From Phascolarctobacterium faecium DSM 14760 (GTDB lineage Bacteria; Bacillota; Negativicutes; Acidaminococcales; Acidaminococcaceae): DNA of 64,000 nucleotides. A program made the translations under genes and the position numbers. Below, one piece after another: positions 1-40,253 of this stretch (the stretch's first letter is position 1; each line of letters opens with the position of its first letter). Location of the stretch: contig NZ_QLTS01000008.1 of the NCBI RefSeq assembly GCF_003269275.1, forward strand, positions 1 through 64,000. The letters run 5' to 3'. The notes under the pieces are model-generated. The model was given only the letters and a program-made list of their open reading frames with translations, was not told the DNA's origin and ran no database searches.

Positions 1-117
1 ATACAGAGGGTTTTAAAGCGCAATCCAAATCTTAACAGCGCTGAAAGTTCTTTGCTGACTTTCTTTCAAGAAAGTCTAAAAAAGCTAAAAAAGCTAAAGA
101 AAAATAAAAAAGATTGA
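1..117 (+). CDS. Possible 3' end of a lysine-rich protein (partial)
   Basis: Frame 1 is open from the left edge to a TGA at 115-117, while the other two forward frames stop within the first 35 bases. The 38 visible residues end in a basic, lysine-rich tail (repeats of KKL). A strong hairpin at 150-185 follows. No family can be assigned from so short a tail, and low-complexity AT-rich DNA can stay open by chance. Confidence 0.35.
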   Translation: MQRVLKRNPNLNSAESSLLTFFQESLKKLKKLKKNKKD

Positions 118-149
118 AGAAAACATTAAAAGAAAACATCGTGTTCTTT

Positions 150-185
150 AAAAAGCAGCCCTTTTAAACAAGGGGGCTGCTTTTT
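150..185. terminator. Bidirectional intrinsic terminator
   Basis: The arms AAAAAGCAGCCC and GGGCTGCTTTTT form a 12-bp hairpin with T-runs on both strands. It lies between the rightward partial frame at the left edge and the leftward amidase gene, so it probably ends both transcripts. Confidence 0.8.
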
Positions 186-733
186 GCATACCACAGGGCC
201 TTGCCCCTGATGACCTGCCCGCCGGGCTTCATTGCTCCGTCGCCGGGTGAATCGCGCAGATACCATAAATCCCAGCGGGTTTCGGCGTCGCCGCTGTACG
301 GTCCGTAGCCGTCGATAAGCGCAGCTTCGCAGTGAGTAAGCACGTTCCCGCGGTCGATAGGGATATTGAGCCCCTGCGCCAGCTTGGCAACTAATTTACC
401 TGCGGCATCGATCTGGCGGGGAGTGGGCGGAAACTTGCCGAACTCAGTATCTCTGCCGTTATGGGGCAGCGCGCCGCAGGCGCAGCAGAGAGCGATACCG
501 ATAGCGCCGGTATTGCGCTGCCACGTATGGCTTTTAAGCTCGGTGAGCTGCGTGCAGGTATGGTAAATACTGCCGTCGGCGTCGATGTTGAAATGGTAGT
601 CGTCGTAAAGCTGGCCGTAATGTCCTGCGGTCCAGTGCAGATAGATCTGCGAGATGCGGTTGTGTCCCAGGGCGACAAGTTCGGCGAGTTTGGCTGCTGT
701 CAGCAGCGGTGCTGATGATATTTGCATTTGCAT
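164..733 (-). CDS. N-acetylmuramoyl-L-alanine amidase (Amidase_2 / endolysin-like)
   Basis: Predicted zinc amidase that cleaves the bond between N-acetylmuramic acid and L-alanine in peptidoglycan. The order of motifs fits the Amidase_2/PGRP fold: IYLHWTAG (first zinc His), DYHFNIDADG, NTGAIGIAL and VLTHCEAA (second His), followed by a C-terminal RWDLWYLRD segment. There is no signal peptide, which suits a phage endolysin that needs a holin, although no holin is visible. The ATG at 733 is preferred over the upstream start because GGAAAGGAG stands about 9 bases before it. The C-terminus runs into the terminator hairpin. The gene is read away from the regulator genes at 1191-2991 and is probably a prophage remnant whose other parts lie left of the window. 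Confidence 0.8.
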   Translation of the reverse strand: MQMQISSAPLLTAAKLAELVALGHNRISQIYLHWTAGHYGQLYDDYHFNIDADGSIYHTCTQLTELKSHTWQRNTGAIGIALCCACGALPHNGRDTEFGKFPPTPRQIDAAGKLVAKLAQGLNIPIDRGNVLTHCEAALIDGYGPYSGDAETRWDLWYLRDSPGDGAMKPGGQVIRGKALWYAKSSPLV

Positions 734-824
734 AGTAGAGATGCTCCTTTCCTGTGAGTTTGGAGAGCAGGCCATTATTTTAACGTACTCCGTTCAGCAT
801 TTTGATGTGCTGTGGCACCCTCTC

Positions 825-843
825 ACTCTTATATGGCTTTTTA
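825..843 (+). repeat. Left arm of a 19-bp perfect inverted repeat
   Basis: ACTCTTATATGGCTTTTTA is the exact reverse complement of 952-970. The 108 bases between the arms make this too wide for a simple hairpin terminator. Outside the arms the match resumes as CCCT on the left against AGGGG on the right, with a 3-base offset. It could be an invertible segment, a recombinase site pair or a large RNA stem. Confidence 0.75.
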
Positions 844-951
844 GGCCCTGTTTTTTAACCTGCCGGCAAGAAAAATTTAAAAAGTGTAAAATTTGCTCTT
901 CCAAGCAGCGGATAAAAAATATTTATGTAAAGGGGGTTAAAAATGACCTTG

Positions 952-970
952 TAAAAAGCCATATAAGAGT
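952..970 (-). repeat. Right arm of the 19-bp perfect inverted repeat
   Basis: TAAAAAGCCATATAAGAGT pairs base for base with 825-843. See the left arm. Confidence 0.75.
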
Positions 971-1190
971 AGGGGATATTATTACTGACGCAGTAAGCAT
1001 ACCGAATCTTTTAAATCTTAAAGACCTTTAGCATCTCTTAAAGCTTTTAAATCATTAAAATCTGTAAATCCTTCATACATACTTATGATTTTGACTTGGA
1101 AGTTTTAAGTGTTAATAATGGTTTTGTATTACTGATCTGCGTTAGTATTGATACTTACACCCTAAATTCAGCGAAAGCAGGTAAAAAAAC

Positions 1191-1517
1191 ATGAATGATT
1201 CTTTAGCTTCACAACAAAAATCTAAAAAGACGGGCGGCGATGTGCTGAGTGCCCGTCTTTTGTATTTGGCGCTGAAATGCCCCTTACTGCAGGGAAAACA
1301 CTGCCAGACAGAGACTGTACGGCCAGTTGAGCCGCAGTCTGCCAGAACGGTGAAACCGCCGAGAAAGGACGATGCTTTAGTAGAGCTGCGTATCGTTTTG
1401 CCTTATGGTCTGCGCAAGCAGGCACAGGACGAGCATATCAACTGCAGCGCTTTGTTCCGCAGGGCGCTTAAGCGCAGTTTAACGTCACGCCGCAGTTCAG
1501 GCGCAAGGTGTGACTAG
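1191..1517 (+). CDS. Small protein with ribbon-helix-helix-like C-terminus
   Basis: Protein of 108 residues. The last 45 residues (VELRIVLPYGLRKQAQDEHIN followed by a CSALFRRALKRSL segment) have the beta-strand, helix, helix pattern of CopG/CcdA-type ribbon-helix-helix DNA-binding domains. The first half is basic and poorly conserved in appearance, and it holds CPLLQGKHC, a possible metal site. The start is uncertain because only a weak AGCAGG precedes it. The stop overlaps the GTG start of the next gene (TAGTG), which implies translational coupling. No toxin gene follows, so I read it as a phage-type regulator, not as an antitoxin. Confidence 0.5.
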   Translation: MNDSLASQQKSKKTGGDVLSARLLYLALKCPLLQGKHCQTETVRPVEPQSARTVKPPRKDDALVELRIVLPYGLRKQAQDEHINCSALFRRALKRSLTSRRSSGARCD

Positions 1518-1735
1518 TGGATCATTTTACAGCGATCGAAAATGCGTGGCTGGAACCTCCGCAGAGCCTGGCGGAAGCCGTGTACAGCTGTGAATTGTGT
1601 AATGAGGCTGTTGGCGCCGGTGATTTGTATATCGAGCTGGATGGGCTCATTATTTGTATAGACTGTCTGGACAGCCTGACGGCGCGGGAGCTGGCAGTAG
1701 AGGTGTTGAATAATAAGATCACCGCAGCAGGGTGA
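1517..1735 (+). CDS. Small CxxC...CxxC protein (putative zinc finger)
   Basis: Protein of 72 residues with two cysteine pairs, CELC near residue 25 and CIDC near residue 48, spaced as in small zinc-ribbon proteins of phages. It starts at GTG 1517, overlapping the previous stop by one base, with AAGGTG about 8 bases upstream. It is encoded between a ribbon-helix-helix protein and a sigma-like factor. Zinc binding is inferred from cysteine spacing only, and the function is unknown. Confidence 0.5.
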   Translation: MDHFTAIENAWLEPPQSLAEAVYSCELCNEAVGAGDLYIELDGLIICIDCLDSLTARELAVEVLNNKITAAG

Positions 1736-1752
1736 AATAAGGGGATGTATTG

Positions 1753-2406
1753 ATGACAGTTACTTGCACAGAAACAGCGGAGTGTGATAAATGGGCCGAA
1801 ATAGTGGCTTTAGCGCAGCAGGGCAATAAAAAGATGCTGGGGGTGATTTTGCAGGCTTTTGATATCAAACTGCGTAAAATAGCACATACCAGCGCATACA
1901 AAGGTTTTGCCGAGGATGGCGAACAGATCGAAAGGATTGCCGTAGTAAAGGCGCTGGAAAAGTGGGGACAGCGGCAGGATTTCGAGAAGCTGCCGGCTTT
2001 TATCGTCAGTAAGTCGTATACGGCGATCAGTAGTGAATGGAAACGCCGGCATAAGGATGAAGAAATGACCTGCCCTTATGAAATAGAAAGCGGCTGTGAA
2101 TTTGCAGAGGAAGTGCTGACGGCAGATGCGGCGCAGACGACGCGTACTTATTTTGAACAGCAGCAACTGCAGCAGGATTTTGCGGAAGTGCGGGAACTGC
2201 TGGTACAGCTTTCGCCCAAACAGGAAGAATTGATCGAACTGCATTTTTTAGAAGGCTGGAGCAACGGCGAACTGGCACAGAGATTTGGCGTCAGTCCTGC
2301 GGCGATCAGCAAAACGATCAAAAAAGGGCTTACTAAGCTGCGGCAGCTGCTGCTTGCAGCGCATCAGGCCGAAAAACAGCGGGAAGCGGAAGAACTGATG
2401 ATGTAG
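1753..2406 (+). CDS. Sigma-70 family-like factor, phage type
   Basis: Protein of 217 residues. The C-terminal 70 residues form a sigma region 4 helix-turn-helix: LSPKQEELIELHFLEGWSNG, then ELAQRFGVSPAAISKTIKKG. The N-terminal part resembles a reduced region 2 (ALAQQGNKKMLGVILQAFD), as in small sigma-like regulators of prophages and toxin loci. The ATG at 1753 is chosen because AGGGG stands about 8 bases upstream. The TTG just before is less likely. It lies with the two preceding small genes as one transcription unit and probably controls late genes of the prophage that this block came from. Target promoters are not identifiable here. Confidence 0.65.
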   Translation: MTVTCTETAECDKWAEIVALAQQGNKKMLGVILQAFDIKLRKIAHTSAYKGFAEDGEQIERIAVVKALEKWGQRQDFEKLPAFIVSKSYTAISSEWKRRHKDEEMTCPYEIESGCEFAEEVLTADAAQTTRTYFEQQQLQQDFAEVRELLVQLSPKQEELIELHFLEGWSNGELAQRFGVSPAAISKTIKKGLTKLRQLLLAAHQAEKQREAEELMM

Positions 2407-2580
2407 ATAAGCTGGAATATGGATCATCAGGCGCAGGCCGGCAGGCTGTTATGGCACTGCCAGCCAGGGTGATCTGCCTGGGAAATGCGTTTGCTGCTGT
2501 CTGGACAGAGAAACCCGTAAGTGCGCCTGACCATATAAGCCAATCAAAGGCTGAAAATATTGCGAAGGATGTGCTGAAAA

Positions 2581-2991
2581 ATGGAGAGACCTTATGAACA
2601 GATACGGCGGATGATAAAACTGTTTGAATATAACAGACTAAAGCTGCGGTTTAGAAACGAAGATGAACGGGCCAGATTTATTGATGGCTGGGCAGAATGC
2701 TTCTGCGAGACGGACGATGCCGAATGGAATATTGCGGTGACTATTATGACTGCCCGCCGCCGCGAACCGAACTTCTATAATATGGAAAAAGCCCTGCGCG
2801 AAGCGCAGGGCATAAGGAGGGAGAGGATATTAGATAAAGAACGAAGAGAAAACGATCAAGCGAATACCACAAATGCACAAAAAAGAGCCTTGCAAAAGCA
2901 AGGCTCTTATAATTTGAAAGCTACACCGAAAACACCCGAAGAAATAGCGCAGGAAGCACTGCTGCGGTATGAGAGGAAGGGGAGAGGTTAA
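2581..2991 (+). CDS. Hypothetical phage-associated protein
   Basis: I do not recognise a family. The 136 residues are charged, with no membrane segment. The N-terminal half (YEQIRRMIKLFEYNRLKLRF) looks helical, and the C-terminal half is lysine- and glutamine-rich. AAGGA precedes the ATG by about 11 bases. Two perfect hairpins lie within the reading frame (2791-2811 and 2883-2908), and a strong AAGGAGGG at 2813-2820 has no ATG behind it. This suggests either that the frame is a fusion of fragments or that the DNA encodes an RNA element. Confidence 0.4.
   Translation: MERPYEQIRRMIKLFEYNRLKLRFRNEDERARFIDGWAECFCETDDAEWNIAVTIMTARRREPNFYNMEKALREAQGIRRERILDKERRENDQANTTNAQKRALQKQGSYNLKATPKTPEEIAQEALLRYERKGRG
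2791..2811. repeat. Perfect 9-bp hairpin inside an ORF
   Basis: GCCCTGCGC, loop GAA, GCGCAGGGC. It is followed directly by the ribosome-binding-like AAGGAGGG, so it could control translation, but no start codon is correctly spaced. Confidence 0.6.
2883..2908. repeat. Perfect 11-bp hairpin inside an ORF
   Basis: AAGAGCCTTGC, loop AAAA, GCAAGGCTCTT. It is the shape of an intrinsic terminator, but it is followed by ATAATTTG, not a T-run, and it falls within the 136-residue frame. Confidence 0.6.
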
Positions 2992-3428
2992 AATTGGATA
3001 TAGTTAATTAATTATTAAGGTACTTTTTATTAAATGTTCAATTACAAATCCTAACATGATAACTTGATTTAAAGTAGTCTATCATAGTATCGATATTTGA
3101 AGTGATAATATCTTCATATGTAAAGTTATTTCTTAATTTAATCAAAGAATTTAAATTCTCTGGTGGGGCGTTTTTGAGGTTAGTATAAAAAACATCCGTT
3201 AAAGTATTATCTAATGTTTTTAACATACAATAGCTCAGTTTTTGTTTCCCTTAAAATTCGTATATGATCATTATTTATAGTCAATTCCATAGAAGATTTT
3301 TGTGGGTGTATTTATATTTCTTTTAATATTTTATGTAATAGTGATGAATATTTAAGAGCTTTTATTTGTTTTGATACTATAAAACAAAATTAAATAATTC
3401 TATATAGAGAAAGAAATCAATCATTAAA
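2992..3428. other. AT-rich spacer at the left edge of the defence island
   Basis: Base composition drops sharply here and stays low to about 8540. The only frame is a 62-residue leftward one at 3038-3226 that lacks a ribosome-binding site and resembles nothing I know. It may be a gene relic. No hairpin or repeat stands out. The boundary near 3000 probably marks the junction between the prophage remnant and the island. Confidence 0.4.
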
Positions 3429-3458
3429 TTGTAAAATATAAAATATAAATGATATAAT
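3429..3458 (+). promoter_or_regulatory. Promoter of the RT-nitrilase gene
   Basis: TTGTAA at 3429-3434, an 18-base spacer, and TATAAT at 3453-3458. The start codon at 3491 lies about 33 bases beyond the -10, so the leader is very short. The -10 is inside the palindrome 3448-3472. Confidence 0.6.
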
Positions 3459-3472
3459 ATAATTATATCATT
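3448..3472. promoter_or_regulatory. 10-bp inverted repeat over the -10 of the RT gene
   Basis: AATGATATAA, spacer TATAA, TTATATCATT: a perfect inverted repeat that covers the -10 and ends just before the ribosome-binding site GGAAGGA. It could be an operator for a repressor or a small RNA stem that masks the start. The AT-rich setting makes chance palindromes more likely. Confidence 0.5.
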
Positions 3473-3490
3473 ATGGAAGGAAGAATGTTC

Positions 3491-6400
3491 ATGTGTAATA
3501 AGCTAGAGAGGGATATAAAAATAGCATATAAAAAATTGAAAGCTAATATATATTTTGATAAAACGCAGCTTCCTTTGAGAAATAAAATTGTCGATTTCGA
3601 ATTGAATGATTTTGAAAAAAATATAAAAGAAATGAATGATGCCTTATTGGGAAATGATAAAGTATGGAATAAGTACCAAGAAAAAATTTTAAAATCTATA
3701 GATGTATTATTATTGCCAAAGAAACTATCTAAAGAAGATTTGCCAGAAGTAATTTTTAATACTAATGAAAATGATATAGTTATTGATAAGCCGCAATTTT
3801 TTATAGATCTTGATGTTACCGGACATATATTGGGGGTATTGTGGATTTTATTCATTGGTCGCTTCTTAGATGATGATATGTATGAATATTCATATGGTAA
3901 TAGATTAAGAAGAACTTTAGTAAATAATGAACTAATGAATGAAGAAAATAATATAACTTTTTCTCCCTCTTTATTTCAACCGTATTTTTCACAATATGAA
4001 GATTGGCGAGATAAAGGTCTGAAATTAGCTAAAAATTGTTTAATTGAAAAGCAAGATGCATTAATATTGACTTTGGATTTTAAAAGTTTTTTTTATAATA
4101 TAGAAATTACAAGTGAAGAATTTGATGCTTTTTATGATGGTAATGAAGAATGGAAAAGAAGGGTAAATTTATTCGTATTTAAAGTTATAAAACAATATTC
4201 GAAGTTAGTGAACAAAATTACAGATATGTATGTAGTAGATGGAGCAGAGGCATCTATATTACCAATAGGATTTTTACCATCAAATATATTGTCTAACTGG
4301 AGATTAAATCAATTCGATAGGCAGATAATAGATCGGTGGAATCCTGTTTATTATGGACGATATGTTGATGATATTATTATTGTTGATAAAGTAGAAAAAA
4401 ATAGCTCCTTATTGAAAGAACAACTATCTAAAACAGATATAATAAAATATTATTTTTGCGGATGTAATGCGACGAAAAGTAGAGATAAAATTTGTCCAAA
4501 TGATAATGAACTTTTTATCTGTAAAGATGAAAAAAATGTGTATTCTGTCAATAGGAAGTTTTTAAACAATACAAAGTCACATATTTCTGTTCAAAATGAT
4601 AAGGTAAAAGTATTTTATTTTAAGCAAGGTGCAACAGAAGCTTTATTGACATGCTTTCAAACACAAATTGCACATAATGTTAGTGAATTTAGATTTTTAC
4701 CTGATATAGAGTCAGGTTTAATTGGTAATGACTATAGTGAAATTTTTGATTTAAATAATAGTGGAAGTATAAATAAATTAAGGGACGTAAATGAAATAAC
4801 TTTAAACAAATTTGAACTGTCAAAATTTTTAGGTAAATATCTACGTGTTGGTGCAGTAATAGAAGACAAAAAAGAAAGCAAATTTGACAAAGATTTGTTA
4901 AATATTTTTGATAAAAGAATGTTAATAGAAAATTATGCATCTTGGGAAAAACTGTTCGAGATATTGGTTGTGAATAATAGAGTCAAAGATATTAAAAATT
5001 TAGTGAAGAAAATTTCAGAAGCCATTGGCAATGTAAAATTAAAAGATGAAAATATAAAATTAAATGAATATAGAAAGGGATTATATACAATTCTATATTC
5101 TTCTTTAAGTAGAGCCCTGGCTCTTTGTTGGGGAACTCATATTAAAGAGTTATTGACTGATCTTGAGCTTAATAAAATAATAAATTATAAAGCGAAAGAA
5201 ATTACATGTTTAAGAAAATCTTATTGCTTAACTAGAATGGTAAATAAATATACTACGCCGTTACCAGTCGATTGTATCAAAGAAGAAGCATTTTGTGATT
5301 CTAGGAATGATAATTTTTATTTATATAAGCTTGATAGTATGATGAAAAATATTAAAGAGTCAAATTTTTGGGGAATTTTATCAGAAACTAATATTTTGAA
5401 TAATTATATTTATTACCCATATATAGTGGCTCCACAAGAAATATCTTTTTCTTTAATTTGCAAAAAAATTGCTAAAAATAATAATATAGACAAACATGAT
5501 GAATTATTGAAAAAAACAAATGATTTATATTTTTATTTAAATTATTTGCACCCAAAAGATTTAGATAGACCTATTATGACTAATGAAATTGAAGTTAAGA
5601 AAATAGAGAAGATAAAAAATGAAAGAGAAGACATTTTTGGAATTTTTGTAAATAGTACCAAAAGAAGTAAATTAAGAGCAGCTATTGGAAATGCCATTTT
5701 GAAAGAATCAGATGTAATATCGGCACTTTGTAATAAACCTAATCGTACATATGATAGATATAAAGAAGTCTCAAAATTGTTGAGTGACGCTATAAAAGAG
5801 GGGGCAGAATTACTAGTATTACCAGAGAATTATTTGCCATTTGAGTGGCTCCCGATACTTACAAGATTTTGTGCTCGAAATCAAATGTCGATAATTACTG
5901 GAATTGAGCATGTAGTTTCTTTAAATAATAACAATATTAATAGAGGTGTTGTTTATAATCTTACTGCAGTGATACTTCCTTATAGGCAAGAAGAATATAA
6001 GTATGCTCATGTTACATATCATCAAAAAGTTCATTTTTCTCCAAATGAATTAAGATTAATTAAGGGTTATAATTATAGGCCAATGGAAGGAAATGTTTAT
6101 TGCTTATTTAAATGGGGGGATATATGGTTTTCATTATATTGTTGTTTTGAATTATCATCAATTAAAGCCAGGTCATTATTCCAATCTTATGCTGATTTAT
6201 GTATCGTAGTTGAATGGAATCGGGATATAAATTATTATAGTAGTATAATGGAATCTTTTTGTAGAGACTTACATTGTTATTGCATTCAAGTTAATTCATC
6301 TGATTATGGTGATAGTAGAATTGTGCAACCTTCGAAAACTGAGATATTGAATATAATCAGAACAAAAGGAGGGAAAAATCGTTCAATATTAGTAGAAGAT

Positions 6401-6550
6401 ATAGATATAGATGTTATGAGAAATTTTCAAATTAAGGAATATGAATTGCAAAAAGACGATAGCATATTTAAGCCAACTCCACCTCAATTTGATAAAGAAA
6501 TTTTGAAAATGAAAATGGAAAGAACTTTAAAGGATTATTTATGGAAATAA
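3491..6550 (+). CDS. drt1: Defence-associated reverse transcriptase fused to nitrilase (UG1/DRT1 type)
   Basis: Large protein of 1019 residues joining a reverse transcriptase to a C-terminal nitrilase domain. This is the architecture of the unknown-group-1 RTs known as DRT type 1 anti-phage systems. RT motifs: LTLDFKSFFYNI (catalytic Asp about residue 196), LPIGFLPSNILSNWRLNQFD, and GRYVDDIIIV with YVDD at 291-294. After a helical middle region, the nitrilase domain (about 705-1000) keeps a full Glu-Lys-Cys triad: LPENYLP (E779), YHQKVHFSP (K846), LYCCFELSS (C885). The ATG at 3491 is preferred over those at 3473 and 3485 because GGAAGGA is 10 bases upstream. Composition is much more AT-rich than the backbone, which points to transfer. 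A 20-bp hairpin covers the stop. It is not a retron or group II intron RT: no msr/msd or maturase features are seen. Confidence 0.9.
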   Translation: MCNKLERDIKIAYKKLKANIYFDKTQLPLRNKIVDFELNDFEKNIKEMNDALLGNDKVWNKYQEKILKSIDVLLLPKKLSKEDLPEVIFNTNENDIVIDKPQFFIDLDVTGHILGVLWILFIGRFLDDDMYEYSYGNRLRRTLVNNELMNEENNITFSPSLFQPYFSQYEDWRDKGLKLAKNCLIEKQDALILTLDFKSFFYNIEITSEEFDAFYDGNEEWKRRVNLFVFKVIKQYSKLVNKITDMYVVDGAEASILPIGFLPSNILSNWRLNQFDRQIIDRWNPVYYGRYVDDIIIVDKVEKNSSLLKEQLSKTDIIKYYFCGCNATKSRDKICPNDNELFICKDEKNVYSVNRKFLNNTKSHISVQNDKVKVFYFKQGATEALLTCFQTQIAHNVSEFRFLPDIESGLIGNDYSEIFDLNNSGSINKLRDVNEITLNKFELSKFLGKYLRVGAVIEDKKESKFDKDLLNIFDKRMLIENYASWEKLFEILVVNNRVKDIKNLVKKISEAIGNVKLKDENIKLNEYRKGLYTILYSSLSRALALCWGTHIKELLTDLELNKIINYKAKEITCLRKSYCLTRMVNKYTTPLPVDCIKEEAFCDSRNDNFYLYKLDSMMKNIKESNFWGILSETNILNNYIYYPYIVAPQEISFSLICKKIAKNNNIDKHDELLKKTNDLYFYLNYLHPKDLDRPIMTNEIEVKKIEKIKNEREDIFGIFVNSTKRSKLRAAIGNAILKESDVISALCNKPNRTYDRYKEVSKLLSDAIKEGAELLVLPENYLPFEWLPILTRFCARNQMSIITGIEHVVSLNNNNINRGVVYNLTAVILPYRQEEYKYAHVTYHQKVHFSPNELRLIKGYNYRPMEGNVYCLFKWGDIWFSLYCCFELSSIKARSLFQSYADLCIVVEWNRDINYYSSIMESFCRDLHCYCIQVNSSDYGDSRIVQPSKTEILNIIRTKGGKNRSILVEDIDIDVMRNFQIKEYELQKDDSIFKPTPPQFDKEILKMKMERTLKDYLWK

Positions 6551-6564
6551 TCCTTTAAAGTTCT
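6521..6564. repeat. 20-bp perfect hairpin spanning the RT-nitrilase stop codon
   Basis: Arms 6521-6540 and 6545-6564 are exact reverse complements, with the 4-base loop ATGG. The left arm encodes the last codons (RTLKDYL) and the right arm contains the TAA at 6548-6550. No T-run follows (TTCTAACAC), so it is not a typical intrinsic terminator. It could stabilise the mRNA 3' end or present a structured RNA to the enzyme. Confidence 0.85.
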
Positions 6565-6569
6565 AACAC

Positions 6570-6586
6570 AAAAGCCGCTGAATATT
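6570..6586. repeat. 17-bp direct repeat of the tRNA-Ala terminator
   Basis: AAAAGCCGCTGAATATT is identical to 8543-8559, the left half of the terminator downstream of tRNA-Ala(CGC). It lies directly after the hairpin of the RT-nitrilase gene and is read as an old attachment-site remnant. Confidence 0.65.
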
Positions 6587-6800
6587 GAACCGCCCCAGAG
6601 TTAATAGACACAAAATATAAAAGCCAATCATAGAATATCATTGATTTACTCCGTCTGACTCCGTTTTTACCTTTTGTTTAAAAGTATCAATGTAATGTAT
6701 TGAAAGAATCTTGTTTTGACAGACATACAAAAGCTTTCAGTCGCAATTTATATTCTAAGATTGAAGACTTTTTATTTCAATGTCTATTTTTCAGACTTCT

Positions 6801-6863
6801 GCTCAATATTCAGAGCGGCTTTTCTAATTTTTAATATACGCTGGAGACAAAGAGGGCAGAACT
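6801..6863 (-). repeat. Degenerate copy of tRNA-Ala 3' end plus terminator (att-like)
   Basis: This stretch aligns with 8550-8609 (terminator, spacer and the last part of tRNA-Ala) at roughly 50 of 63 positions with short gaps. The tRNA-end part CTGGAGACAAAGAGG matches GGTGGAGACGAAGAGG. The orientation is the same as in the intact tRNA. Such a copy is expected at the far end of an element integrated into a tRNA 3' end. The divergence suggests an old event. Confidence 0.7.
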
Positions 6864-7034
6864 ATTAATATTATTTGTGTAAGTCTTATATTATAAATGA
6901 GGCCAGTCAGACAAAACGTATTGAATATATAATAGTTTAAATTATGTAATTGGAAGTGGAGTATTAATTTATAAAATAAACCTAGTATAATGGCGCTGGT
7001 ATGGTATTATATGATATATATTGATGTTGACTAG

Positions 7035-8477
7035 TTATTTTGGAAAAACTATTTGTTGATATTTTTCGTTAAGAATATTTTCTATAGCGGATGTTCCTTT
7101 AAGTGGAAATTCAGAAAGAGCCCTATTTAAATCAATATCAGTGATAGGGATAATTAATCCTCTACCATCATTTAAAGTATCTGAGCAACGTTTCATAAAA
7201 GAATTACTTTCATCTAATGCTCTACATGTGAGAATACCAACGCGACCACGCCTTGGACTAAAACGTCCAGATAGTTGATCTAGTTCTGGGTTTTTTACTT
7301 CTCCCACATAGTTTTTACATTCAATAAAAATAAAAGGACAGTTTAAAGAAGAATCTTTTGTTGGTAAGTTAAAGAAGAATCCATTTGAAGAAGAGTTATT
7401 AAAAGTAATATCAATTCTTTTTCTGCCTTCATGAATAGGCGTTTCTTTTTTTGGTGTTGATAAATTTGGATAGAACAATAACTCTAGAATTCCTATTATT
7501 AAATTATGATAATTAGATGCTTCTGATGAGCCAGGGGAAAGAGTGGATAATTTATCTGAAAGATATTTGCAAATAGAAGTAATATCTAATGGGTTAGTTA
7601 CATATCCGTCAATAGGCTGTAATTTGGTTGATGTTTGTTCTTTAAAATTTTTGAATATCTCTGGGTGCTGTTTGGTGAATTTAGCAAGATAATCTTTATC
7701 CATTGTTTCTTCGCTGTCTATGACACTTTTCTTTGTAACATATTTGGATTTATCTTTGCGTGTTCGCATTAATGCGGTTTGAAGGCGAAGATGTTCATTT
7801 TGAAGATAGTTTAAGACGAAGTGTTGTCGATATTCAGTAGGAGTATATTTATCAGAATATGAGACTATACGTTTAGGTACTAGTAATATTGGTTTATTAT
7901 TTAGGATGAGTCGTTCTGTGTAATTGTTGTCCCAGCTTTTTGTCTTTTGATTCCAATACATTCCTGAAGGAATATTTGGGGTTAGTGGAATATTATGTAA
8001 AAAACATTGTTCTTTTGTATATTCAAGTAAATGAATTTTAATAATATTAGCAGTCATGTCAGACACTTTATCTTTATCAACATTCGGAACGAATATACGA
8101 AAGTCTTCAATATCTTCCATTACTCCAGTTTTTATTGCATTACTTTGCAAAAGCTGTTGGAATATCAAACTTGTATCTTTCGGCCCCATACCATGACCAT
8201 TTGGTTTACCACGAGACATACCAAAACAAATATCATTATTTTCTCCTAAATATGAGAATAATTCTTCTGCTTCTTTCACGTCATTATTTCTTAAAAGTGC
8301 CAAAAGGAATTCAAAATATGATCTAATAGAGCTATCTGCTGTTATTGCAAAATCAAAATCGCATTTTGAAATATAGTATGGGTCTAAAAAGAGAGGTGTG
8401 TCTATTTCTGGATCTATATCAACAAAATCTAGCTCGTATTGAGTTTTATTCAATTTATAAATTTGGCTTATTTTCAT
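7035..8477 (-). CDS. Uncharacterised protein with C-terminal PD-(D/E)XK nuclease motif
   Basis: Protein of 480 residues, AT-rich like the RT-nitrilase gene and convergent with it. The C-terminal third carries the restriction-endonuclease-like core: a helix with Glu (IIGILELLFYP), KRIDITF (D356), then FIFIECKNY (E386, K388), followed by VGEVKNPELDQLSGRFSPRR, as in Mrr-type nuclease folds. The first 300 residues (starting KISQIYKLNKTQYELDFVDI) match no domain I can name and may sense or bind DNA. The ATG at 8477 is preferred over a TTG six bases upstream, with GAGAGG about 10 bases before it. Position in an insertion hot spot beside a DRT1-type gene suggests an anti-phage role, which is inference only. 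Nuclease activity is predicted from three residues. Confidence 0.65.
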   Translation of the reverse strand: MKISQIYKLNKTQYELDFVDIDPEIDTPLFLDPYYISKCDFDFAITADSSIRSYFEFLLALLRNNDVKEAEELFSYLGENNDICFGMSRGKPNGHGMGPKDTSLIFQQLLQSNAIKTGVMEDIEDFRIFVPNVDKDKVSDMTANIIKIHLLEYTKEQCFLHNIPLTPNIPSGMYWNQKTKSWDNNYTERLILNNKPILLVPKRIVSYSDKYTPTEYRQHFVLNYLQNEHLRLQTALMRTRKDKSKYVTKKSVIDSEETMDKDYLAKFTKQHPEIFKNFKEQTSTKLQPIDGYVTNPLDITSICKYLSDKLSTLSPGSSEASNYHNLIIGILELLFYPNLSTPKKETPIHEGRKRIDITFNNSSSNGFFFNLPTKDSSLNCPFIFIECKNYVGEVKNPELDQLSGRFSPRRGRVGILTCRALDESNSFMKRCSDTLNDGRGLIIPITDIDLNRALSEFPLKGTSAIENILNEKYQQIVFPK

Positions 8478-8539
8478 GACCAAGACACCTCTCTAATATA
8501 ATTATTTATTAAACATTATACCATGAAATATTTAAACAA

Positions 8540-8570
8540 ACAAAAAGCCGCTGAATATTCAGCGGCTTCT
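8540..8570 (-). terminator. Terminator of tRNA-Ala(CGC)
   Basis: GCCGCTGAATATTCAGCGGC is a perfect palindromic hairpin. Read leftward it is followed by TTTTTGTTTGTTT, so it ends the tRNA transcript. Half of it recurs at 6570 and a degenerate copy at 6801. Confidence 0.8.
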
Positions 8571-8585
8571 TTACTTTCAATATAA

Positions 8586-8661
8586 TGGTGGAGACGAAGA
8601 GGATCGAACTCTCGACCTTACGGATGCGAACCGTACGCTCTCCCAGCTGAGCTACGTCCCC
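8586..8661 (-). tRNA. tRNA-Ala, anticodon CGC
   Basis: The 76-nt cloverleaf has acceptor GGGGACG/CGTCTCC, D-arm GCTCAGCTGGGAGAGC, anticodon stem TACGG/CCGTA with loop TTCGCAT (anticodon CGC, codon GCG), T-loop TTCGATC, and encoded CCA. Its 3' end points toward the AT-rich island, the usual geometry for integration into a tRNA end. Confidence 0.95.
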
Positions 8662-8779: not shown

Positions 8780-8804
8780 TTAAAGTAATTTCATAAGTAT
8801 TTGA

Positions 8805-9073
8805 TCGATGATGAGGATTAGTAGCTTTGCCAAGCGGACCTCAGCGAGCCGGTGACAGTGCAAGTCCGGCGTTTGGCGGCAGGGTGAATGGACCTTTAAG
8901 ATACGGCTTGAGCCCGCAAGGGGGTAGACGCCGTCGGGATGCTTCGCCCGTTACCAGGGAAGGGGATATCGGCCATGGCCCGTATCTTAGCGAGCGGACC
9001 TTAATCGGTCAAGCAGGGTGGTACCGCGAAAGTTGCGTCTTTCGTCCCTACATAGGGATGAAGGGCTTTTTTT
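8805..9073 (+). promoter_or_regulatory. T-box leader, probable specifier TGG (Trp)
   Basis: The canonical T-box sequence AGGGTGGTACCGCG is at 9015-9028. It is followed by a 13-bp terminator stem (9037-9049 with 9054-9066) and seven T. Stem I is recognisable by AGTA at 8820-8823 and the distal GCGAGCCGGTGACAGTGCAAG region. Opposite AGTA, the sequence GAATGGACC places the codon TGG at 8889-8891, which would make the sensor tRNA-Trp. Uncharged tRNA would stabilise the antiterminator and switch on the ECF genes. The T-box is certain; the specifier reading is by eye. Confidence 0.88.
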
Positions 9074-37541: not shown

Positions 37542-40253
37542 ATGGATAACAAGAAAGCTTTAAGAATGGCGGTCACACTGGCGATAATAAATATGCCGCT
37601 TTTAGCGCAGGCCGCAGATGTAAGTCCCGTAAGGATTACAGACGGCAGTACCTACACGATGACAGCTGATTCTGTAATAAATACCGGTTCTAATACAACA
37701 GGTATTTTTGTCGGGTATAAAGATGGCGGTACGATTGTTGGCGATAATGTCACCGTTACCAGCGACGGCTATGGTATCCAAATCCAGACTTATGCTACAG
37801 GGGGCGTTGCAGGCAGCGGCGATTGTAGTATTAAGCTTGGTAAAACGATCGTTGAGGCTAAATCTTCTGCGGTACGTGTAGACTCAAGCAGCTATGGTCA
37901 AAAGGCGACAGTTATTTTAGGTGCCGGCAGTATTTTAAATTCATCAGCTAATTCTGCTGTGTACGTTACGGGTAAAGATTCTCTGCTCCAAATAGGCGAT
38001 GGCAGTACAGTTACCGGCAACAGTTATGGTGCTACAGGGGCAGCGCTTGCTTCCTCCAGCGGCGGTAAGATTGAAATCGGCAACGGTGTTACGATAGGGC
38101 ACGATAATATCAGAGGCTATGATGTCAACAGCATTGCGGTATTATCGATGGATGGCAATGCGAGCCAAGGCCAAAGTAATATTACAATCGGCGACGACAG
38201 TACGATTTATGCCAAAGGGAAAGGTTATGGCGCAAATGCCGTTCAGGCGGGCTATTTATCATATACTGGTTTTAACGGTGTTGGTACTAAACAGGGGAGC
38301 TCCGGACAGATAAGTGTAGGCGATAAGGCAACTATCTGGACGGAAGGGGACGAGTCCTTTGCTGTCTATGGTATCCATGCCGATTCCACGCTTTATGTTG
38401 GCAAAGATGCCGAGATCAGTACTCAGGGCGATAAGGCTTCGGCTGTCCGCGGCGGCAATATTACTAAAGTATATGATTTTACTGCTGCCGGCGGCAAAAT
38501 CACTATTGATGAAGGGGCAGAAATCAAAACTCTGGGGGATCAGTCACATGGTGTAGACGCCCGTTATGACGGCACTCTGATCGAATTAAAAAAAGACGCG
38601 GTCATAACGACAGTTGGCAGTGAGTCTCATGGCGTAACGGCGCTTGCCGGCGGCACGGTAATTTTACAGGACGCTGCTGTTACTGTGGATTCAACAAAAG
38701 ATGCTTATGCTTTCAGTGCGGAAGGTAAAGATAGTGATACAGCTGCCGTCAGTACTATTACCGGCAGTGGTGTTTATAATATTGTCGGCGATATCAGGGC
38801 TGCGGACGGCGGCATTCTTACATTAGATCTGGCAGAAGGTTCGCGGTTTGAGGGAAAGGCTGTGCTCGACAGCGGCAATGATTCACAGAGCACCTTAACT
38901 ATGGCTAAAAACTCGCTGTGGACTTTGACTGGCAATTCACAGCTCAACAGTTTGCAGAATGAACAGTCTGTGATCGATATGACTGGCGATAATAAGGCTT
39001 TCAGTACGCTGTCTGTGGAAACGCTGACAGGTAACGGTGGGACGATCATTATGGATATTGATGGTTCCCAGGTTGATGCCAGTGATAAAATTTATGTCAC
39101 AGGTGATTTCAGCGGAAGCCAGACACTGTCACTGAAGGAGATAAATGGACTCGACAGTGATCCGGGAATAGGCCAGGCGGCAGAAAATACTGTTTTAGCC
39201 AGTGTCAACGGCAGCGGTACTTTTACGGCTGATGATCAGGAAGGCACTTTGTACTGGCAGCGTTATGAGCTGGGACAAAAAGACAGTGCTGCTTCCGGTT
39301 ATACGACAGACTGGTATTTGAAAGGCATTACAAATCTTAACCTGCCGACAACCAGTGTAGAGGCTATCGCTGCTTCGGGAGCACTGGCTTATCATACCTG
39401 GCGCGACCATGATCAGCTGCTGCAGCGGCTGGGAGATCTGCGCCAGCATGGTAGAGAGGAAGAGGGCGTCTGGGTAAGGGTCAAAGGCGGTAAGCTGAGC
39501 CGCAGTGACCAGTTTGAATTTGAGAATAAATACACACAGTATGAGCTTGGCTATGACCAAAAATTGAAGTCAACGCCGGCGTATACGCGTTATGCTGGTA
39601 TTTCCTTCAGCTATTTGGATGGCGACAGCAGTTACAGCAGCGGTAGCGGCGAGAATAAAGTTAAAGCTTTAAATATTTACGGCACGCAGATCGGTGCTAA
39701 GGGCCATTACCTTGATTTAGTGTTGAAATACAGTCAGCTCGATAATGATTTTAAGGTTTTTGATACCTCCGGCAATAAGATCACCGGCGACTATGACCAA
39801 AATGGATTATCGATAAGCGCGGAATATGGGCGCAAAAACAATCTGAAAAATAATTGGTATATCGAACCGCAGGCCCAGCTCACTTTTGGCAGGCTGCGCG
39901 GAACTGACTACACCACAAGCAATGGCATCAGGGTAGATCAGGATGGAATCGACAGTTTTGTGGGACGTATTGGTTTCAATATTGGTAAAGATATCAATGA
40001 AAAAACTAATATATACTTGAAAGCTAATCTGATGCATGAATTTGGCAGCGGCTATAATGCCTCAATGGTTGATGCCAGCGGTACAAAAGCAAGACTGGAT
40101 CGTAATTTTGATGATACCTGGTTTGAATATGGCTTAGGCGCAGCAGTGCAGACTGGTAAAAACAATTACTTCTATGTTGATGTCGAGCGCAGTGCCGGCA
40201 GTGATTATAAAAAAGACTGGCAGTGGAATGTCGGCGCCAGATGGAGTTTCTAA
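37542..40253 (+). CDS. Autotransporter (type V secretion), beta-helix passenger
   Basis: Outer-membrane protein of 903 residues. The signal peptide (MAVTLAIINMPLLAQA-AD) is cut near residue 25. The passenger (about 26-590) has many short Gly/Asp/Thr repeats such as GDNVTVTSDGYGIQIQ, GDGSTVTGNSYGATG and GDDSTIYAKGKGYGANA, as in pertactin-like beta-helices. The C-terminal 280 residues form the autotransporter barrel, beginning near WVRVKGGKLSR and ending in VGARWSF with the terminal Phe needed for barrel insertion. It probably mediates adhesion or surface interaction. No protease triad is obvious. It shows that the organism has an outer membrane. Confidence 0.92.
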   Translation: MDNKKALRMAVTLAIINMPLLAQAADVSPVRITDGSTYTMTADSVINTGSNTTGIFVGYKDGGTIVGDNVTVTSDGYGIQIQTYATGGVAGSGDCSIKLGKTIVEAKSSAVRVDSSSYGQKATVILGAGSILNSSANSAVYVTGKDSLLQIGDGSTVTGNSYGATGAALASSSGGKIEIGNGVTIGHDNIRGYDVNSIAVLSMDGNASQGQSNITIGDDSTIYAKGKGYGANAVQAGYLSYTGFNGVGTKQGSSGQISVGDKATIWTEGDESFAVYGIHADSTLYVGKDAEISTQGDKASAVRGGNITKVYDFTAAGGKITIDEGAEIKTLGDQSHGVDARYDGTLIELKKDAVITTVGSESHGVTALAGGTVILQDAAVTVDSTKDAYAFSAEGKDSDTAAVSTITGSGVYNIVGDIRAADGGILTLDLAEGSRFEGKAVLDSGNDSQSTLTMAKNSLWTLTGNSQLNSLQNEQSVIDMTGDNKAFSTLSVETLTGNGGTIIMDIDGSQVDASDKIYVTGDFSGSQTLSLKEINGLDSDPGIGQAAENTVLASVNGSGTFTADDQEGTLYWQRYELGQKDSAASGYTTDWYLKGITNLNLPTTSVEAIAASGALAYHTWRDHDQLLQRLGDLRQHGREEEGVWVRVKGGKLSRSDQFEFENKYTQYELGYDQKLKSTPAYTRYAGISFSYLDGDSSYSSGSGENKVKALNIYGTQIGAKGHYLDLVLKYSQLDNDFKVFDTSGNKITGDYDQNGLSISAEYGRKNNLKNNWYIEPQAQLTFGRLRGTDYTTSNGIRVDQDGIDSFVGRIGFNIGKDINEKTNIYLKANLMHEFGSGYNASMVDASGTKARLDRNFDDTWFEYGLGAAVQTGKNNYFYVDVERSAGSDYKKDWQWNVGARWSF

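What the first reader, a model, noticed from the sequence alone, without database searches (positions are those of the whole stretch)
3491..6550. DRT1-type reverse transcriptase-nitrilase fusion with intact active sites
The gene joins an RT (LTLDFKSFF, YVDD at 291-294) to a nitrilase domain whose Glu-Lys-Cys triad (E779, K846, C885) is complete. RT-nitrilase fusions of the UG1 group are known anti-phage systems (DRT type 1). I know of no described member from a Negativicutes-like host, and the nitrilase substrate and RT product of this type remain unclear.
Basis: partly seen in the sequence, partly recalled or inferred. Interest (0 to 1): 0.85.

Follow-up and report, generated by a model that had tools for sequence, protein, structure and literature searches.

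The report
UG5-type reverse transcriptase-nitrilase defence gene
This bacterial gene, in an AT-rich stretch of foreign-looking DNA beside a tRNA gene, fuses a DNA-making enzyme (a reverse transcriptase) to a nitrilase; it is an intact new member of a known anti-virus family called UG5-nitrilase, a cousin of the DRT1 system rather than DRT1 itself.

Summary
The best profile is RT_UG5-nitrilase (790.6 bits); Drt1a scores only 71.4. A tree places it inside UG5, with three DRT1 proteins outside. It is therefore UG5-large, a class 3 UG/Abi reverse transcriptase, not UG1/DRT1. Both are known defence families: an E. [quoted passage not shown]

New here: two DRT1 working parts recur in UG5. A serine (S398), conserved in 74 of 75 UG5 proteins, starts a low-confidence loop three columns from DRT1's priming Ser402. 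The C-terminal motif KxxP[PA]xF matches DRT1's lid around Lys1219. A DRT1-like mechanism is thus plausible, with a testable priming site.

The gene is AT-rich (26% GC, flanks 47-59%) and lies near a tRNA-Ala and a degenerate copy of that tRNA's 3' end. It is rare in its class (2 of 380 genomes). No obvious partner gene adjoins it, unlike in several relatives. No activity was tested.

The parts
3491..6550 (+). UG5-large reverse transcriptase-nitrilase gene (1019 aa; ATG at 3473 would add 6 aa)
   Evidence: intact ORF; PADLOC RT_UG5-nitrilase 790.6 bits over residues 12-1016 of the 1025-aa form
3475..3483 (+). ribosome-binding site-like GGAAGGAAG, 7-8 nt before ATG 3491
   Evidence: read directly from the sequence
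3926..4414 (+). RT core (Pfam RVT_1 stretch)
   Evidence: Pfam PF00078 32.7 bits, above cut-off; RT fold in the model of the N-terminal half
4361..4372 (+). YVDD catalytic box (residues 291-294)
   Evidence: both Asp 75/75 in UG5 homologues
4682..4684 (+). Ser398 (404 in the 1025-aa form), proposed DNA-priming residue
   Evidence: 74/75 conserved; 3 columns from DRT1 S402 in the profile alignment; start of a stretch with pLDDT < 50 in the RT-half model
5657..6499 (+). nitrilase (CN-hydrolase) domain
   Evidence: VIA-align Z 20.8-23.4 to CN-hydrolases over model residues 729-1010
5825..5827 (+). Glu779, catalytic
   Evidence: 75/75
6026..6028 (+). Lys846, catalytic
   Evidence: 75/75
6047..6049 (+).
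   Evidence: 75/75
6143..6145 (+). Cys885, nucleophile
   Evidence: 74/75
6470..6490 (+). C-terminal KPTPPQF motif (K994-F1000), matching the DRT1 lid KTQPAGF
6521..6564 (.). perfect 20-bp inverted repeat across the stop codon, no T-run after it
6800..6863 (+). degenerate second copy of the tRNA-Ala 3' end and its terminator (att-like relic)
   Evidence: local alignment to 8549-8610
7035..8483 (-). neighbouring defence candidate (PDC-M36A), a separate gene
   Evidence: PADLOC 141.3 bits; phrog_27295 283.9 bits
8586..8661 (-). tRNA-Ala (CGC); the island lies on its 3' side

Best explanation
It is a chromosomally carried, probably horizontally acquired, single-gene UG5-large anti-phage system that works like DRT1. 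Proposed mechanism: the RT domain adds short, untemplated DNA to its own chain, most likely at Ser398. The DNA adducts drive assembly of the nitrilase into tetramers and higher assemblies in which the C-terminal KPTPPQF segment caps a neighbour's active site. Phage replication disturbs this state, the nitrilase becomes active, and the infected cell stops or dies before phage release. Shown here: family, intact active sites, both folds (models), the conserved serine and lid motif, and the mobile-looking setting. Shown elsewhere: protein-primed DNA synthesis by purified class 3 enzymes, and phage defence by DRT1 and by one distant UG5 system. Inferred: all activity of this protein, Ser398 as primer, the lid role, and the effect of the nitrilase. 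My confidence is about 0.95 for the UG5 class and about 0.6 for the DRT1-like mechanism.
For: PADLOC scores. Tree of 78 proteins, query with L032 and L033 at SH-aLRT 100 and DRT1 outside. The strongest profile match among solved structures is DRT1, 9yfd, 109.3 bits, in two stretches covering RT and nitrilase; the next is a retron RT at 41.9 bits. Ser398 in 74/75 UG5 proteins, three columns from DRT1 S402, and 27 residues after an invariant Lys (about 29 in DRT1, counted on the printed alignment). The loop after it is predicted with low confidence, and the matching DRT1 loop 382-478 is unresolved in the cryo-EM map. KxxP[PAED]x[FYW] in the last 90 residues of 66/75 UG5 proteins, against about 0.012 expected per sequence from the rest of the proteins, and Lys994 72/75; 9yfd and three DRT1 homologues share KxxPAG there. 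DRT1 K1219A abolishes defence. A UG5 RT-nitrilase + 1TM system blocks phage in E. coli. Relatives sit beside restriction enzymes, Kiwa, GajA and DRT1b genes.
Against: No assay of any kind. PMC13275509 says the DRT1 priming serine is not conserved in other class 3 DRTs; an offset serine is my reading of a low-similarity alignment, and a second alignment places it differently. Strict conservation of Ser398 could be structural. No coordinates were available, so the distance from Ser398 to the RT site was not measured. The tested E. coli UG5 system has a transmembrane partner; here none is adjacent. The paper does not spell out in the text read that DRT5S/L are UG5 small and large; this is inferred from the names and the class.
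Confidence: 0.65

Rival explanations
1. It is a true UG1/DRT1 protein.
For: Same domain order; Drt1a profile matches weakly (71.4 bits); DRT1 is the best solved relative.
Against: The UG5 profile scores about eleven times more bits; DRT1 lies outside the UG5 clade in the tree; the protein is about 200 residues shorter than DRT1 (1019 vs 1229).
Confidence: 0.03
2. A UG5 defence protein whose RT primes DNA at other residues and whose nitrilase is switched by a different route, perhaps through a membrane or other partner encoded elsewhere.
For: Relatives carry different neighbours: DRT1b-type TM protein (L091), Cap15-like 2TM protein (L094), Csx27-like TM protein (L051, similar 226-aa TM protein in L081), DpdF-like helicases (L033, L045, L050). 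The validated E. coli system has a TM partner.
Against: No obvious partner next to the gene: nearest upstream ORF of 136 aa is 482 bp away and the nearest downstream gene is on the other strand, 485 bp away; lid motif and tetrad point to the same nitrilase control as DRT1.
Confidence: 0.25
3. Not a defence gene: an RT-nitrilase serving the mobile element or host metabolism.
For: No assay; only one other genome of the class has it.
Against: Neighbours in relatives are often defence genes; two related systems block phage (PMC9122126, PMC13275509).
Confidence: 0.07

Closest known systems
UG5 RT-nitrilase + 1TM, E. coli P4-like satellites (PMC9122126)
   Same: UG5 reverse transcriptase with C-terminal nitrilase domain; shown to protect against phage
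   Different: Paired with a transmembrane protein, absent next to this gene; a fused UG5 of an E. coli plasmid (L026) is only 23% identical and lies in a distant clade; whether L026 is close to the tested system was not checked
DRT1 / UG1 (PDB 9YFD; PMC13275509)
   Same: Class 3 UG/Abi RT; RT-helical-nitrilase order; catalytic tetrad; Lys and Ser of the priming region nearly in register; C-terminal KxxPAxF lid
   Different: Separate clade; 1229 vs 1019 aa; priming serine offset by three columns; Drt1a profile only 71 bits
UG5-small + separate nitrilase gene (probably DRT5S of PMC13275509)
   Same: Same UG5 clade, same serine, same nitrilase C-terminal motif on the partner
   Different: RT and nitrilase encoded by two adjacent genes; the tree shows split forms in more than one place
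Uncultured Syntrophomonas and Oscillospiraceae UG5 proteins (L032, L033)
   Same: Nearest relatives, 50% and 48% identical
   Different: Different neighbours (GmrSD-like; DpdF-like helicase); untested as far as the papers held here show

Membership tests
UG5 RT-nitrilase (class 3 UG/Abi RT) | Best match to UG5-nitrilase profile over the full length | tested here: met
   PDLC03780 790.6 bits, residues 12-1016, profile 23-896/907
UG5 RT-nitrilase (class 3 UG/Abi RT) | Groups with UG5 proteins in a tree | tested here: met
   inside UG5, SH-aLRT 100 with L032/L033, DRT1 outside
UG5 RT-nitrilase (class 3 UG/Abi RT) | Intact RT catalytic Asp and nitrilase E-K-E-C | tested here: met
UG5 RT-nitrilase (class 3 UG/Abi RT) | RT and CN-hydrolase folds | tested here: met
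   predicted models
[quoted passage not shown]
   reported for DRT5S and DRT5L in PMC13275509
UG1 / DRT1 | Best profile Drt1a / UG1 | tested here: not met
   71.4 bits against 790.6 for UG5
UG1 / DRT1 | Clusters with DRT1 in a tree | tested here: not met
   three DRT1 proteins form a separate clade
UG1 / DRT1 | Priming serine equivalent to S402 | tested here: inconclusive
   invariant Ser398 three columns away in one alignment, aligned otherwise in another
UG1 / DRT1 | C-terminal lid KxxPAxF | tested here: met
   KPTPPQF aligned with the DRT1 C-terminus in MAFFT; same spacing as KTQPAGF of 9yfd; frequencies
Retron, DGR or group II intron RT | Best profile match to one of these | tested here: not met
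   NCBIfam retron_St85 43.9 (cut-off 235), group II 20.4 (cut-off 300) bits; PADLOC retron model 20.7 bits

The most novel reading that the evidence does not exclude
Class 3 RT-nitrilases share one autoregulatory design older than the UG1/UG5 split (a single priming serine in a loop after the RT domain plus a C-terminal KxxP[PA]xF lid), and the Clostridia-methanogen UG5 clade to which this gene belongs can use it as a stand-alone, one-gene defence system without a membrane partner.
Probability: 0.35. Interest if true: 0.5.

Novelty: new member of a known kind. Interest (0 to 1): 0.35.

Why it matters
The gene corrects a group assignment and shows, by sequence, that the two residues on which the DRT1 model rests (primer serine and C-terminal lysine) have likely counterparts across UG5. 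One alanine mutant (S398A) would test whether a single design covers all RT-nitrilase defence proteins.

Tried and rejected
DRT1/UG1 membership: rejected on profile and tree. Retron, DGR and group II intron: rejected. Upstream non-coding RNA: no Rfam match between 2992 and 3490 and no unusual folding (z -0.27). Copies in phage records: none, and no DNA match of 1-7000 to phages. Single-protein scans of genome contigs and viral contigs found no relatives; an alignment query did. Foldseek and VIA-align did not list the DRT1 structure 9YFD among the rows shown; that library ends in April 2026. First scans of neighbours failed on wrong coordinates. No integrase is evident among the ORFs read near the island; the contig begins at window base 1, so the far end of the element is missing.

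Full report
Observation. The gene is real and intact: one frame to 6550, start best placed at 3491. A second nitrilase glutamate, E853, completes the tetrad. All are nearly invariant in 75 UG5 proteins. AlphaFold2 gives a confident model whose C-terminal part is a CN-hydrolase and whose N-terminal half, modelled alone, is an RT.

Identity. PADLOC gives RT_UG5-nitrilase 790.6 bits, against 71.4 for Drt1a. Pfam and NCBIfam give only general RT matches and a sub-threshold CN_hydrolase match. A tree of 78 proteins places the gene with a Syntrophomonas and an Oscillospiraceae protein (50 and 48% identical), inside UG5 and apart from DRT1. The tree is a quick one; the three DRT1 rows sit on long branches, but they fall outside UG5, which agrees with the profile scores.

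Distribution. Of 380 genomes of the same class, two have a match at E <= 1e-25: this one and G141, whose copy is 45% identical over 551 aa and ends at a stop codon close to a contig end. In the host's own family the other matches are weak and confined to parts of the profile. Fused UG5 genes occur on E. coli and Sinorhizobium plasmids at 22-23% identity.

What is known. PMC9122126 reports an E. coli UG5 RT-nitrilase with a transmembrane partner that protects against phage. PMC13275509 reports that DRT1, DRT5S and DRT5L make DNA without a supplied template, attached to protein. In DRT1 the primer is Ser402, the DNA drives filaments, a C-terminal lid closes the nitrilase, and both active sites are needed for defence. 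The nitrilase substrate is unknown there.

Carry-over to UG5. (a) In the profile alignment to 9yfd, UG5 Ser404 of the 1025-aa form (Ser398 here) lies three columns before DRT1 S402. It is 27 residues after an invariant Lys, compared with about 29 in DRT1, and is present in 74 of 75 UG5 proteins; the exception has a serine nearby. It is one of two serine columns above 90% in UG5; the other, S270, is in the RT core. The residues after it have low model confidence, and the DRT1 loop is unresolved in the cryo-EM map. The MAFFT alignment with three DRT1 homologues places the serine differently, and the paper states that S402 itself is not conserved outside DRT1, so this is a lead, not proof. (b) A KxxP[PAED]x[FYW] motif occurs in the last 90 residues of 66 of 75 UG5 proteins, against about 0.012 expected per sequence, including separate nitrilase partners of UG5-small. 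It has the spacing of KTQPAGF at the DRT1 C-terminus, where K1219A abolishes defence.

Setting. GC is 26-30% over the gene and its downstream neighbour, against 47-59% in the flanks. To the left are an amidase-type endolysin and a sigma factor matching phage families. To the right, after a PDC-M36A gene on the other strand, is tRNA-Ala(CGC), whose 3' end faces the island. A degenerate copy of that 3' end lies at 6800-6863, as expected of integrations at a tRNA gene; the junction was not tested against an empty site, and the tRNA sits in other contexts in relatives. No obvious partner gene adjoins. Relatives have varied defence neighbours.

Host. The window encodes an autotransporter barrel, which fits a diderm member of the Bacillota such as Negativicutes; the class name itself was not confirmed.

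Verdict. A new member of a known kind, with a corrected group and two testable sequence predictions. Interest is moderate.

Noticed in passing
window 7035-8483 (-): PDC-M36A candidate defence gene between the UG5 gene and tRNA-Ala; it carries 'FIFIECKNY', reminiscent of PD-(D/E)xK nucleases. PADLOC 141.3 bits, phrog_27295 283.9 bits.
   Followed up: partly
window 6570-6593, 6800-6863 and 8543-8610: Partial copies of the tRNA-Ala terminator and 3' end, suggesting more than one insertion next to this tRNA.
   Followed up: partly
window 6521-6564: Perfect 20-bp inverted repeat spanning the end of the gene and its stop codon, without a T-run.
   Followed up: no
window 8799-9052 (+): T-box leader-like match, 84.4 bits against a gathering score of 93, upstream of ECF transporter genes.
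   Followed up: no
L094 6439-7062: Cap15-like 2TM cyclic-nucleotide receptor protein directly downstream of a UG5 gene in Acinetobacter rudis; the three other neighbours scanned gave no PADLOC match, so no cyclase was seen beside it.
   Followed up: partly
L091 9964-10440: DRT1b/RTasTM-type transmembrane partner next to a UG5 gene in Grimontia indica, the partner family known from DRT1.
   Followed up: no
L033 5137-7026, L045 5102-6925, L050 9263-11392: DpdF-like helicase genes directly beside UG5 genes in three close relatives; DRT1 escape mutants map to a phage helicase, so a link is conceivable.
   Followed up: no
L023 / L064 (Carboxydocella): UG5 gene that looks broken: the match falls in two overlapping pieces with stops in the matched stretch.
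   Followed up: no
window 37542-40253 (+): Autotransporter with outer-membrane barrel domain, 903 aa, near tRNA-Thr.
   Followed up: no
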